Shown one piece after another: positions 25,906 to 57,267 of a stretch of DNA of 64,000 nucleotides. The notes beneath the pieces are model-generated. The model was given only the letters and a program-made list of their open reading frames with translations, searched no databases and had not been told where the DNA came from. The position numbers and the translations under genes are program-made. The first letter of the stretch is position 1. Each line of letters begins with the position of its first letter. The DNA is from Psychroflexus longus (GTDB taxonomy: Bacteria > Bacteroidota > Bacteroidia > Flavobacteriales > Flavobacteriaceae), in contig NZ_JAIQZE010000003.1 of the NCBI RefSeq assembly GCF_020164595.1, forward strand, positions 62,001 to 126,000, in the 5' to 3' direction.

Positions 25906-26085
25906 AAAAAAAGCCTGCATTAGCCTAGTTTTGTATAAAACTCCGTGTAAACAGGTTTAGGGATACTCAATTGATCAAGGATCCGCTGCACCGAAGTGGC
26001 GGCTTGCTTTAGCAACTGAAACTCACCCTTTTTAAATAGTAAATGTTGAGTTTATCAAAAAGGTACGACTAATACAGGCAGTATC
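25906..26085 (-). ncRNA. ssrS: 6S-like regulatory RNA (6S-Flavo type) between zapA and rny
   Basis: The zapA-rny gap folds on the minus strand as one long hairpin-like RNA of about 180 bases. The two ends pair over 11 bp: 26069-26079 reads GCCTGTATTAG and 25913-25923 reads CTAATGCAGGC on the RNA strand, with one G-U pair, followed at once by seven T (25912-25906), a natural 3' end. Inside is a stable UUCG hairpin, CCGC-CAC-TTCG-GTG-CA-GCGG. 6S RNA sits next to zapA in many bacteria, and a Bacteroidota version (6S-Flavo) has been described. It would bind RNA polymerase holoenzyme. The 5' end is approximate. Confidence 0.8.
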
Positions 26086-51741: not shown

Positions 51742-51760
51742 TTGAGATATAAACAATCTT

Positions 51761-51796
51761 AAAAAGCTGGTTCGAAATACTTCAAACCAGCTTTTT
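51761..51796. terminator. Terminator between fumC and the PCIF1-like gene
   Basis: AAAAAGCTGGTT pairs with AACCAGCTTTTT. Inner GAA/TTC pairs continue the stem after one C-A mismatch. Both strands end in a T run, so it serves both convergent genes. Confidence 0.85.
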
Positions 51797-52775
51797 ATTT
51801 GGAGTACCCCTCTAAAATAGCTTTAGCAGAGAAATTATCAAGCTTGCCATATCTGTGAATGCAAACATTAACGGGTAAAGGTTTTAGGACTCCTTCCAAA
51901 CCCTCATAATAATGAATATCTTTTTTTAAAGTCACTGTTTCGTCAGGTTTATTTTTTGGCGTGTGACTTTCTGGAATAATGAGTAAAAAGCTTAGGTTTT
52001 TATATTTAGCCAGCCATTCTTTTAGAATGCTGTCAACTTTAGACATGATTTCAGTTGTAAATGGAGGATCCAGGCACCAGTGGCCAGGATTTTCAGGCTG
52101 GCTCAAACGGAAATAACTCCCTGCACTACCAAAAATTTCATCAGTATCTTTAAATAAACTGTAGAACTGTGCATTTTCCTTGCCCAATAACCTGGCGTTA
52201 AAAGGCGAAGCAAAGCCTTCATTTTTGATGCCCCAGTTATAGAACATATCATACACCTTTTGTGGTGGTCCGATATGTCGCGTTTCAGCATAAATCGAAC
52301 CGTATCTTAAAGCTGAACTCAAAATGGCATTAGTTGCTATAGCCTCACCAGATTTAGACTTTACATAATTGTAAGCTTTGTCGATATACTGGTTGCGTTT
52401 TAATTTGAAATTACCGATTTTAAATAGATTGGAATCAACTTTAGCTTCGTTAGGAATTTCAATAGTTTCAAAGTAAGTTTTTGAAGCATCCTGAATCAAT
52501 TGAAAACAATGTTGGGTTTCAATTTCAGTCAGAATTAAATTCGCATATCCAAATCCTGATTTTATAGAATCATAGTCAACTTTCAGAAATAAATCCTGAC
52601 CATACATTTCATGACTTGGCTGTAAATTCATCAGTGTGTTTTCAAGTCCAGCTTTTACTTCTGCTTTATTTCCTTTCACTGATAAATACTGAAAAACATC
52701 TTCAAGTATTTTTTGGCTCAACGCCCAATGTTGGTATTCATCTTTTACTTCTGAATTTATCTCAACTGAATTCAT
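51795..52775 (-). CDS. PCIF1/CAPAM-like adenine N6-methyltransferase homologue
   Basis: 326 residues with no signal peptide. The C-terminal half carries, in the right order, the motifs of human PCIF1 (the cap-adjacent m6Am methyltransferase): GFASPFNARLL (187-197), DTDEIFGSAGSYF (210-222), the catalytic tetrad DPPF (236-239; NPPF in PCIF1), a hydrophobic strand FLLIIPES (263-270; FIVFIPEW in PCIF1) and HYY (288-290). The N-terminal WW domain of PCIF1 is absent. DPPF/NPPF tetrads bind the target adenine in N6-methyltransferases. Bacterial mRNA lacks an m7G cap, so the substrate is open: RNA, DNA or protein. It lies 58 bases after an ArsC-like gene and prfB on the same strand. Confidence 0.75.
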   Translation of the reverse strand: MNSVEINSEVKDEYQHWALSQKILEDVFQYLSVKGNKAEVKAGLENTLMNLQPSHEMYGQDLFLKVDYDSIKSGFGYANLILTEIETQHCFQLIQDASKTYFETIEIPNEAKVDSNLFKIGNFKLKRNQYIDKAYNYVKSKSGEAIATNAILSSALRYGSIYAETRHIGPPQKVYDMFYNWGIKNEGFASPFNARLLGKENAQFYSLFKDTDEIFGSAGSYFRLSQPENPGHWCLDPPFTTEIMSKVDSILKEWLAKYKNLSFLLIIPESHTPKNKPDETVTLKKDIHYYEGLEGVLKPLPVNVCIHRYGKLDNFSAKAILEGYSK

Positions 52776-52833: not shown

Positions 52834-53175
52834 TTAAAGAATCCTTTTAATATCCTCAGGAGGTCTCCCGATGACAGCTTTATCGCCATTGATAACTATT
52901 GGACGCTCAATCAATTTTGGATATTCAAGTATGGCATCTATTACTTCTGCATCAGAAAGGGATTTGCCTTTGAAGTTCTCTTTCCAAATTTTTTCCTGAG
53001 TCCTCACCAGATCCATTGGTGAGATATTGAGTTTATTCAGAATAGAGGAAATCTCTTCTTTGGAAGGAACTTCTTCTAAATACTTAACAATTTCAAACTC
53101 GTTTCCAGAAGCTTCCAAAATAGCTAAGCCTTCTCTGGATTTTTTACATCTTGGGTTATGGTATATTGTAATCAT
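52834..53175 (-). CDS. arsC: ArsC/Spx-family thioredoxin-fold protein
   Basis: 113 residues of the ArsC (glutaredoxin-dependent arsenate reductase) family. The active-site Cys10 lies in YHNPRCKKSR, and the C-terminal part has RPIVINGDKAVIGRPPEDI. There are no other ars genes around, so a YfgD-like housekeeping role is as likely as arsenate reduction. Its ATG overlaps the prfB stop as ATGA, meaning translational coupling to release factor 2. Confidence 0.88.
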   Translation of the reverse strand: MITIYHNPRCKKSREGLAILEASGNEFEIVKYLEEVPSKEEISSILNKLNISPMDLVRTQEKIWKENFKGKSLSDAEVIDAILEYPKLIERPIVINGDKAVIGRPPEDIKRIL

Positions 53176-54279
53176 AAGGTATCATTTTCTTTTTTCTGTC
53201 CGCTGCTCATCAAGAAGGTTTTCAAAAAGGAATCAATATGACCATTCATAATGTCGTCTACATTTCCACTTTCATGACCTGTTCTCACATCCTTAACAAG
53301 CTTGTAGGGATGCATGACGTAATTACGAATCTGTGATCCCCATTCTATACTTTTCTTTTCAGACTCAATTTCAGTTCTGGCCGCTTGCTGTTTCTGAAGC
53401 TCAATTTCATACAACTGAGATTTCAACATCTGCATGGCTTTTTGCCGATTTTCTAATTGAGATCGGGTTTCAGAATTATGAATCACGATACCGCTAGGGT
53501 GGTGAGTCAAAATTGCTTTAGTTTCAACTTTGTTGACGTTTTGACCACCGGCACCACCAGATCTGGCAAAATCCCAATTGATGTCGGATGGATTGATATC
53601 AATTTCTATCGTGTCATCAACCAAAGGATAAACATATACGGAAGCGAAGGAGGTGTGACGTTTAGCATTACTATCAAATGGAGAAATTCTGACTAATCGA
53701 TGAACTCCATTTTCACCTTTCAACCAACCAAAAGCATAATCGCCCTCAATTTCTAAAGTTACCGTCTTGATACCCGCTACATCACCTGATTGATGGTTCA
53801 GTTCTCTTACTTTGAAGCCTCTGCGCTCAGCCCACATCACATACATTCTCATAAGCATCTCCGCCCAGTCACAGCTCTCGGTACCTCCAGCACCGGCTGT
53901 GATTTGTAAAATAGCCGTTAAAGGATCGCTTTCTTCAGAAAGCATATTTTTAAATTCTAAATCTTCGATAAGCTCTAAAGCTTCATCATGTTTTTCTTGT
54001 ATTTCCTCTTCAGAAACATCTCCTTCTTCGTAGAATTCAAATAAGACGTTGAGGTCTTCTACTTTTTGTTTGGCTTCATCAAAACTTTTGATCCATTGCT
54101 TTATATCATTGATGGCTTGCATCAATTTTTGTGCTTCCTGAGGTTTATCCCAGAAATTTGGAGCAAATGTTTTTTCTTCTTCGTTGGAAACTTTTACGCG
54201 TTTAGCATCTAAGTCAAAGATATTGATTTAGGGAAGTGATACGCTTGTTTATAGTCTTTATGGAGTCTGAATTGATCAT
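53172..54279 (-). CDS. prfB: Peptide chain release factor 2, with programmed +1 frameshift
   Basis: Recognises UGA and UAA stop codons. The gene is in two frames: ATG 54279 reads 21 codons to a TGA at 54216-54214, preceded by TAT CTT, giving the classical TAT-CTT-TGA-C shift site. Skipping one base continues as Asp-Leu-Asp-Ala-Lys-Arg-Val in the frame that runs to 53172. The full product is about 368 residues, normal for RF2. The catalytic GGQ is in SGGAGGQNVNK and the UGA-reading loop is nearby. RF2 thereby controls its own synthesis. The AGGGGG-like Shine-Dalgarno that stimulates the shift in E. coli is missing here (upstream reads CCCTAAATCAA). Confidence 0.95.
54214..54219 (-). promoter_or_regulatory. 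Programmed +1 frameshift site of prfB
   Basis: CTT-TGA (54219-54214), followed by C (54213). The zero-frame Leu tRNA slips forward one base so that GAC is read next. Both flanking peptides match RF2. Confidence 0.92.
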
Positions 54280-57063: not shown

Positions 57064-57138
57064 TGAATTTTGAGTTTTCGCAAATATCCAACTTATAGGC
57101 TTAAGAAAAAAATGAGAAAAGTTGAGGGAATAAAAAAA

Positions 57139-57232
57139 GGCAAGCTACCTACATCACACCGCTACGACCATCTACCCTTGCTGCGTTCCCGCCCTGGGGG
57201 ATTCGACAGGAGCTGGTTGTGTAGGACTTGCC
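57139..57232 (-). ncRNA. ffs: Signal recognition particle RNA (small bacterial type)
   Basis: 94-base RNA whose ends, GGCAAGTCC and GCTTGCC, pair, followed by seven T on the minus strand (57138-57132). The universally conserved SRP loop is present: GGGCGGGAACGCAGCAAGGG, containing the GGAA and AGCA of the Ffh-binding internal loop. It would form the Ffh-RNA particle for co-translational membrane targeting. Confidence 0.95.
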
Positions 57233-57237
57233 GATTG

Positions 57238-57267
57238 CAAATATACGATCTTATTTAAAGTCGGCAA
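57238..57267 (-). promoter_or_regulatory. Promoter of the SRP RNA gene
   Basis: On the minus strand TTG (57267-57265), exactly 19 bases, then TATATTTG (57245-57238), and 5 bases before the first G of the RNA. This is a full match to the Bacteroidota sigma-A consensus and the best promoter in the window. Confidence 0.85.

What the first reader, a model, noticed from the sequence alone, without database searches (positions are those of the whole stretch)
51795..52775. Bacterial homologue of PCIF1/CAPAM, the cap-adjacent adenosine methyltransferase
The C-terminal half reads GFASPFNAR, DTDxxFGSxGS, DPPF, LLIIPES and HYY in the order and spacing I remember for PCIF1 (ASPLNAR, DTDGYFGSRG, NPPF, FIVFIPEW, MHYY). 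PCIF1 is known for methylating the first transcribed adenosine next to the m7G cap of eukaryotic mRNA. Bacterial transcripts lack that cap, the WW domain is missing, and the tetrad is DPPF instead of NPPF. So the target could be a triphosphate or NAD-capped 5' end, rRNA, tRNA or DNA. This is the most unusual gene in the window.
Basis: partly seen in the sequence, partly recalled or inferred. Interest (0 to 1): 0.8.

Follow-up and report, generated by a model that had tools for sequence, protein, structure and literature searches.

The report
Bacterial relative of mRNA-cap adenosine methyltransferase
A salt-loving marine bacterium (Psychroflexus) carries, as an ordinary well-kept chromosomal gene, a small relative of PCIF1, the enzyme that methylates the first adenosine beside the cap of our own mRNAs; since bacteria lack that cap, what it methylates is an open and testable question.

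Summary
The 326-aa ORF (51795-52775, minus strand) hits Pfam PF12237 (PCIF1_WW, in fact the PCIF1 methyltransferase core) at E=1.4e-19. Human and zebrafish PCIF1 are the only significant matches in the PDB, by sequence and by predicted fold (pLDDT 93). The catalytic tetrad is DPPF instead of NPPF. There is no WW domain, and the N-terminal helical part is about half the size of PCIF1's.

The host is Psychroflexus. 14 of 27 sampled species carry the gene. In those with readable context it sits mostly at one site (fumC / PCIF1-like / arsC / prfB) and evolves under purifying selection (dN/dS 0.06-0.18). Elsewhere it is very rare: Salibacter halophilus and a few MAGs, in unrelated neighbourhoods with no conserved partner. 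All 17 bacterial proteins form one clade and share an invariant TRHIGPP loop at the position of PCIF1's active-site loop. A published survey states that PCIF1 is absent from prokaryotes.

Best reading: a stand-alone, active SAM-dependent adenine-N6 methyltransferase on RNA, most likely at a 5'-terminal adenosine (triphosphate, NAD or NpnN-capped). Enzyme class is well supported; the substrate is inference. m7G-cap specificity is unlikely but was not structurally tested. New variant of a known kind.

The parts
51795..52775 (-). PCIF1/CAPAM-family methyltransferase gene, 326 aa plus stop
52299..52775 (-). N-terminal mainly helical part (residues about 1-159), candidate counterpart of the much larger PCIF1 helical domain; less conserved
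   Evidence: secondary structure; conservation; correspondence to the PCIF1 helical domain not shown residue by residue
52263..52283 (-). TRHIGPP loop (residues 165-171), invariant in 17 bacterial proteins, GQQWA in two viral relatives; position of PCIF1 active-site loop 479-494
   Evidence: loop numbering from PMC10544176
52191..52214 (-). FASPFNAR motif (residues 188-195), shared with PCIF1 (FASPLN)
52059..52070 (-). DPPF catalytic tetrad (residues 236-239), aligned with human N553-F556 (NPPF)
51760..51797 (-). 17-pair terminator-like hairpin between the convergent fumC and methyltransferase genes
52834..53175 (-). arsC-family (PF03960) gene immediately upstream, same strand; conserved neighbour in Psychroflexus carriers
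53172..54125 (-). prfB (release factor 2), upstream, same strand, overlapping arsC; conserved neighbour

Best explanation
The gene encodes a stand-alone, minimal bacterial member of the PCIF1 methyltransferase family: a Rossmann-fold, SAM-dependent enzyme that puts a methyl group on N6 of adenine. Committed mechanism: the enzyme binds an RNA whose first nucleotide is A. The terminal adenine enters a pocket lined by FASPFN, DTDxxFGSxGS and DPPF, with F239 stacking on the base and D236 plus backbone carbonyls holding the N6 amine next to SAM. The TRHIGPP loop and the small helical N-terminal part contact the 5' phosphates or a non-canonical cap (pppA, NAD-A or NpnA). The product would be m6A at the RNA 5' end, which could change decapping or turnover by RppH/ApaH-type enzymes. 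Shown: family membership, fold, conservation of the catalytic tetrad, selection, stand-alone genomic setting. Inferred: methyl transfer to adenine N6 (about 0.85). Inferred more weakly: RNA as substrate (about 0.7) and the 5'-terminal adenosine as target (about 0.4).
For: PF12237 hit. PCIF1 is the only significant PDB match by sequence and by fold; giant-virus PCIF1-like proteins are the best viral fold matches. FASP, FGSxG and PPF are invariant across bacterial, viral and vertebrate proteins. dN/dS 0.06-0.18 argues for a working enzyme. The family's known biochemistry points to 5' ends: PCIF1 prefers 5'-terminal A, acts on uncapped 5'-Am RNA only 3-4 times more slowly than on a cap analogue, and has low activity on non-5' adenosines (PMC11550742). 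Bacteria do carry m6A at RNA 5' ends: m6Ap3A caps in E. coli, with NpnN-cap methylation protecting against RppH (PMC7044304).
Against: No substrate evidence was obtained. The m7G-contact residues of zebrafish PCIF1 (R239, R269, E563; PMC7948815) could not be placed confidently in the bacterial protein. The active-site loop differs completely from the viral one. The protein is not basic (pI 6.1, near the window median 5.7), which does not favour broad nucleic-acid binding. One study found PCIF1 about 100-fold less active on an ordinary RNA oligo than on the cap analogue. E. coli has methylated NpnN caps but, as far as I know, no PCIF1 relative (PF12237 was also found in none of 14 control genomes), so other enzymes can do this.
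Confidence: 0.42

Rival explanations
1. Same enzyme class but an internal RNA target: a site-specific m6A writer for rRNA, tRNA, tmRNA or internal mRNA positions.
For: DPPF is also the tetrad of the 28S rRNA writer ZCCHC4, and the bacterial RNA m6A writers RlmF and RlmJ act on internal 23S rRNA sites (PMC7927073). The gene is a settled single-copy chromosomal gene next to prfB, compatible with a translation-linked role.
Against: The closest characterised relative is strongly 5'-end directed. Presence in only about half of one genus and a handful of others is unusual for an rRNA or tRNA modifier. Neighbourhood is not conserved outside Psychroflexus.
Confidence: 0.28
2. A DNA adenine methyltransferase (orphan or defence-linked) that kept the PCIF1 fold.
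For: DPPF resembles the DPPY/DPPF tetrads of DNA adenine methyltransferases (established knowledge). PCIF1 itself methylates ssDNA at about half its level on uncapped RNA (PMC11550742).
Against: No meaningful PADLOC match, no restriction or defence neighbours recognised, no relatives in plasmid or phage collections, and a settled site shared across the carrier clade.
Confidence: 0.13
3. A methyltransferase acting on free nucleotides or dinucleotides (for example ApnA, NAD, ATP), perhaps supplying methylated initiating nucleotides.
For: Protein is neutral to acidic, without a basic N-terminal part, and has a reduced helical region; NpnNs serve as initiating nucleotides for RNA polymerase (PMC7044304).
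Against: No small-molecule gene partner recurs; no characterised family member is known to me to act on a free mononucleotide; acidity matches the proteome and RF2 itself has pI 4.9.
Confidence: 0.1
4. Not catalytically active, or not a nucleic-acid methyltransferase despite the fold.
For: Sequence divergence outside the core is large (16% identity to human PCIF1 in the fold alignment).
Against: The core motifs are invariant over 17 bacterial proteins down to 37% identity, and selection is purifying.
Confidence: 0.07

Closest known systems
PCIF1/CAPAM (human, zebrafish; PDB 6irv, 6irx; Pfam PF12237)
   Same: Rossmann methyltransferase core with FASP(L/F)N, DxDxxFGSxG and (N/D)PPF in the same order; only significant PDB match by sequence and fold.
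   Different: No WW domain or CTD link; 326 aa against 704; N-terminal helical part about half the size; DPPF for NPPF; bacterial TRHIGPP loop; host has no m7G cap.
Giant-virus PCIF1-like proteins (Cafeteria roenbergensis virus E3T4I2, Bodo saltans virus, Tetraselmis virus, pithoviruses; IMG/VR L086, L087)
   Same: Similar small size for several, same core, best viral fold matches (TM up to 0.64); profile match covers 267 columns including most of the N-terminal part, though alignment there is weak.
   Different: The two read here have NPPF and GQQWA in place of DPPF and TRHIGPP; separated from the bacterial clade by a long branch.
Jumbo-phage small adenine methyltransferases close to 'clade 3/PCIF1' (Iyer et al. 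2021, PMC7824862)
   Same: Proposed phage relatives of PCIF1 thought to act on RNA.
   Different: Could not be retrieved for comparison; no phage genome matched this protein by tblastn and no PHROG matched significantly.
ZCCHC4 (28S rRNA m6A writer)
   Same: DPPF tetrad in a Rossmann RNA adenine methyltransferase (PMC7927073).
   Different: No sequence or significant fold match here; zinc fingers; different family.

Membership tests
PCIF1 methyltransferase family (PF12237) | Profile match above the curated cut-off | tested here: met
   70.8 bits against 31.1, E=1.4e-19; bacterial relatives L017, L026, L029 and L031 also above
PCIF1 methyltransferase family (PF12237) | Rossmann core whose nearest solved structure is PCIF1 | tested here: met
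   Foldseek E=2.2e-10 to 6irv; next non-PCIF1 hit E=0.013. Global superposition is loose (TM 0.54, rmsd 18.7)
PCIF1 methyltransferase family (PF12237) | Catalytic N/D-P-P-F after FASP and FGSxG | tested here: met
   DPPF, invariant in 17 bacterial proteins
PCIF1 methyltransferase family (PF12237) | SAM-dependent N6-adenine methylation | not testable with these tools
   Needs enzymology
CAPAM proper (m7G-cap-specific, Pol II-linked) | NPPF tetrad exactly | tested here: not met
   DPPF in all 17 bacterial proteins
CAPAM proper (m7G-cap-specific, Pol II-linked) | N-terminal WW domain binding phospho-CTD | tested here: not met
   Chain starts at the helical part; no WW match in Pfam
CAPAM proper (m7G-cap-specific, Pol II-linked) | m7G contacts (zebrafish R239, R269, E563) | tested here: inconclusive
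   R239 and R269 lie in the helical domain, outside the sequence alignment; of the possible Glu positions, the one two residues after the tetrad is mostly not E in bacteria and the next one mostly is; zebrafish residue numbering could not be fixed
CAPAM proper (m7G-cap-specific, Pol II-linked) | Substrate m7GpppA(m) in the host | not testable with these tools
   Bacteria have no m7GpppN mRNA capping (established knowledge); methylated NpnN caps exist in E. coli
Anti-phage or restriction-modification methyltransferase | Defence-gene context or defence profile match | tested here: not met
   No meaningful PADLOC match and no such neighbours recognised

The most novel reading that the evidence does not exclude
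A bacterial 5'-end adenosine m6A writer: the enzyme methylates the first transcribed adenosine of bacterial RNAs (triphosphate, NAD or NpnN-capped). This would make terminal m6A an activity of the PCIF1 family that stands apart from the m7G cap, with a bacterial-specific TRHIGPP recognition loop.
Probability: 0.32. Interest if true: 0.85.

Novelty: new variant of a known kind. Interest (0 to 1): 0.57.

Why it matters
A 2022 survey states that PCIF1 occurs only in eukaryotes and has no prokaryotic homologue (PMC8868631). A cultured bacterial genus with a vertically kept member gives a small natural enzyme in which cap recognition and terminal-adenosine methylation can be separated. It is also a candidate for a writer of m6A at bacterial RNA 5' ends, where methylated products have been reported in E. 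coli (PMC7044304).

Tried and rejected
Phage or plasmid origin: tblastn against 50,697 phage and 72,556 plasmid records gave nothing. IMG/VR gave no close relative, only two giant-virus-like loci with a mixed vertebrate-bacterial profile. PHROGs, NCBIfam and PADLOC gave no meaningful match. Pfam Minor_capsid_2 (E=0.026) and the antibody light-chain hits are chance. A weak PF12237 match in another Flavobacteriaceae genome (G089, 37 aa, E=7.6e-4) lies in a frame full of stops and is taken as chance. Contamination rejected: 237-kb contig, same site in many other Psychroflexus genomes. Eukaryotic or giant-virus donor: not resolvable, since only short vertebrate segments and two viral proteins were at hand and their branches are very long. 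Net charge as a substrate clue: not diagnostic. PMC4738411, PMC8931429 (Yu 2022) and PMC6703822 (Boulias 2019) and the jumbo-phage record were not held. Metagenome scan not available.

Full report
Observation. The ORF at 51795-52775 (minus strand) encodes 326 aa beginning MNSVEINSEV. Pfam gives one significant family, PF12237 PCIF1_WW, E=1.4e-19, residues 154-272; this Pfam family is the methyltransferase core, not a WW domain (PMC7641849). Against all PDB chains, only zebrafish and human PCIF1 match significantly (about 6e-9 with a 17-member profile).

Structure. AlphaFold2 with 14 genus sequences gave pLDDT 87.7. With 19 sequences, including more distant bacterial and two viral ones, it gave 93.1 and pTM 0.90. 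Foldseek against the PDB finds human and zebrafish PCIF1 at E=2e-10 to 1e-8 and nothing else below 0.01 (earlier model). The alignment spans some 400 columns, but the global superposition is loose (TM about 0.54, 16% identity), as expected if the helical part is reduced and differently arranged. Against viral models the best hits are giant-virus PCIF1-like proteins.

Catalytic anatomy. Human N553-F556 (NPPF) aligns with D236-F239 (DPPF). Counting back from N553, the first aligned human residue is P494, the last residue of the published active-site loop 479-494 (PMC10544176), and it aligns with bacterial P171. The bacterial loop that ends there is TRHIGPP, invariant in all 17 bacterial proteins down to 37% identity, while the two viral proteins have GQQWA at that place. 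The loop differs by lineage while the rest of the core is shared, so I infer that it helps set substrate choice. D instead of N in the tetrad is compatible with N6-adenine chemistry: ZCCHC4 has DPPF (PMC7927073).

Host and distribution. The window lies in a 2.95-Mb genome (G000). 14 of 27 genus genomes carry the gene. PF12237 was found in no other genome of 120 family members except a chance match, in 2 of 296 phylum genomes (both in this genus) and in 3 of 396 order genomes. A scan of 84,980 species for this subfamily gave 14 loci: Psychroflexus, Salibacter halophilus and MAGs, one of them labelled a proteobacterium, from a GC-rich 7-Mb bin. Relatives of Salibacter and of that MAG lack it. 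The patterns used were specific to this subfamily, so more distant bacterial PCIF1 relatives could have been missed.

Neighbourhood and history. In the Psychroflexus carriers with long enough contigs, the order is fumC, PCIF1-like, arsC, prfB; genomes without the gene have other genes next to arsC/prfB (the arsC end of P. gondwanensis is seen). On the prfB tree the carriers fall within one 14-row subclade with two label changes, consistent with one gain and later loss. Two carrier MAGs assigned to the genus (G424, G433) have the gene elsewhere and branch outside the main group, suggesting separate arrivals. In Salibacter and the MAGs no neighbour recurs. The gene is a downstream neighbour of prfB-arsC with a short gap, followed by a terminator-like hairpin shared with fumC; an operon is possible but not shown. 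dN/dS is 0.06-0.18, against 0.01-0.03 for prfB and fumC: constrained, but evolving faster than housekeeping genes. GC (35.0%) matches the window (35.5%).

Tree. The 17 bacterial proteins form one clade (97/99) apart from two viral and two vertebrate sequences, across a very long branch. Vertebrate rows cover only 98 residues or fewer and viral branches are extreme, so neither the root nor the donor can be told.

Mechanism. From the family's chemistry, I infer a SAM-dependent adenine-N6 methyltransferase. PCIF1 itself prefers 5'-terminal A, tolerates lack of a cap (3-4 times slower on a 5'-Am oligo), is poor on non-5' A, and has some activity on ssDNA (PMC11550742); another study saw a drop of about 100-fold on an ordinary oligo (PMC7948815). 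E. coli contains m6Ap3A and other methylated NpnN caps, and methylation protects NpnN caps from RppH (PMC7044304). A terminal-adenosine writer without m7G dependence therefore fits best, but nothing here tests it. The zebrafish m7G contacts could not be placed. The bacterial proteins are mostly neutral to acidic, roughly as the window's other proteins, unlike the positively charged groove reported for the PCIF1 helical domain, which argues mildly for a small recognition element rather than long RNA binding.

Novelty. A published survey reports no prokaryotic PCIF1 (PMC8868631); Iyer et al. noted small jumbo-phage enzymes near the PCIF1 clade (PMC7824862). From memory, the earlier Aravind-group classification may mention bacterial members; those papers were not held, so I cannot say that nobody has listed these proteins. 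I rate it a new variant of a known kind.

Noticed in passing
window 54213-54219 (-): CTTTGAC upstream of the listed prfB ORF, inside the longer prfB frame: the classic RF2 programmed +1 frameshift site, so the listed TTG start is not the true one.
   Followed up: partly
window 25938-26051 (-) and 57134-57240 (-): Rfam matches: 6S-Flavo RNA and Bacteroidales small SRP RNA. Ordinary.
   Followed up: no
L086:2512-3411 and L087:2371-3411 (IMG/VR): Two giant-virus-like contigs encode PCIF1-family proteins with NPPF and a shared GQQWA loop; the L087 neighbour looks, by eye, like a family B DNA polymerase.
   Followed up: partly
BFVD entry A0A0H4XWM9: An uncharacterised protein of Salmon gill poxvirus matches the model at E=2.6e-7, TM about 0.6, so it may be a PCIF1-like protein encoded by a poxvirus.
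   Followed up: no
L082:7040-7963 (P. gondwanensis): An extra transposase-like ORF (identified by eye) lies between fumC and the TonB-type receptor gene near the locus.
   Followed up: no
L031 (10.2 kb MAG contig): The most divergent bacterial copy (37% identity) lies in GC-rich DNA between a flagellin-like gene and a BCCT-type transporter (identified by eye); its label 'proteobacterium' and its tree pairing with a Flavobacteriales MAG suggest transfer or binning error.
   Followed up: partly
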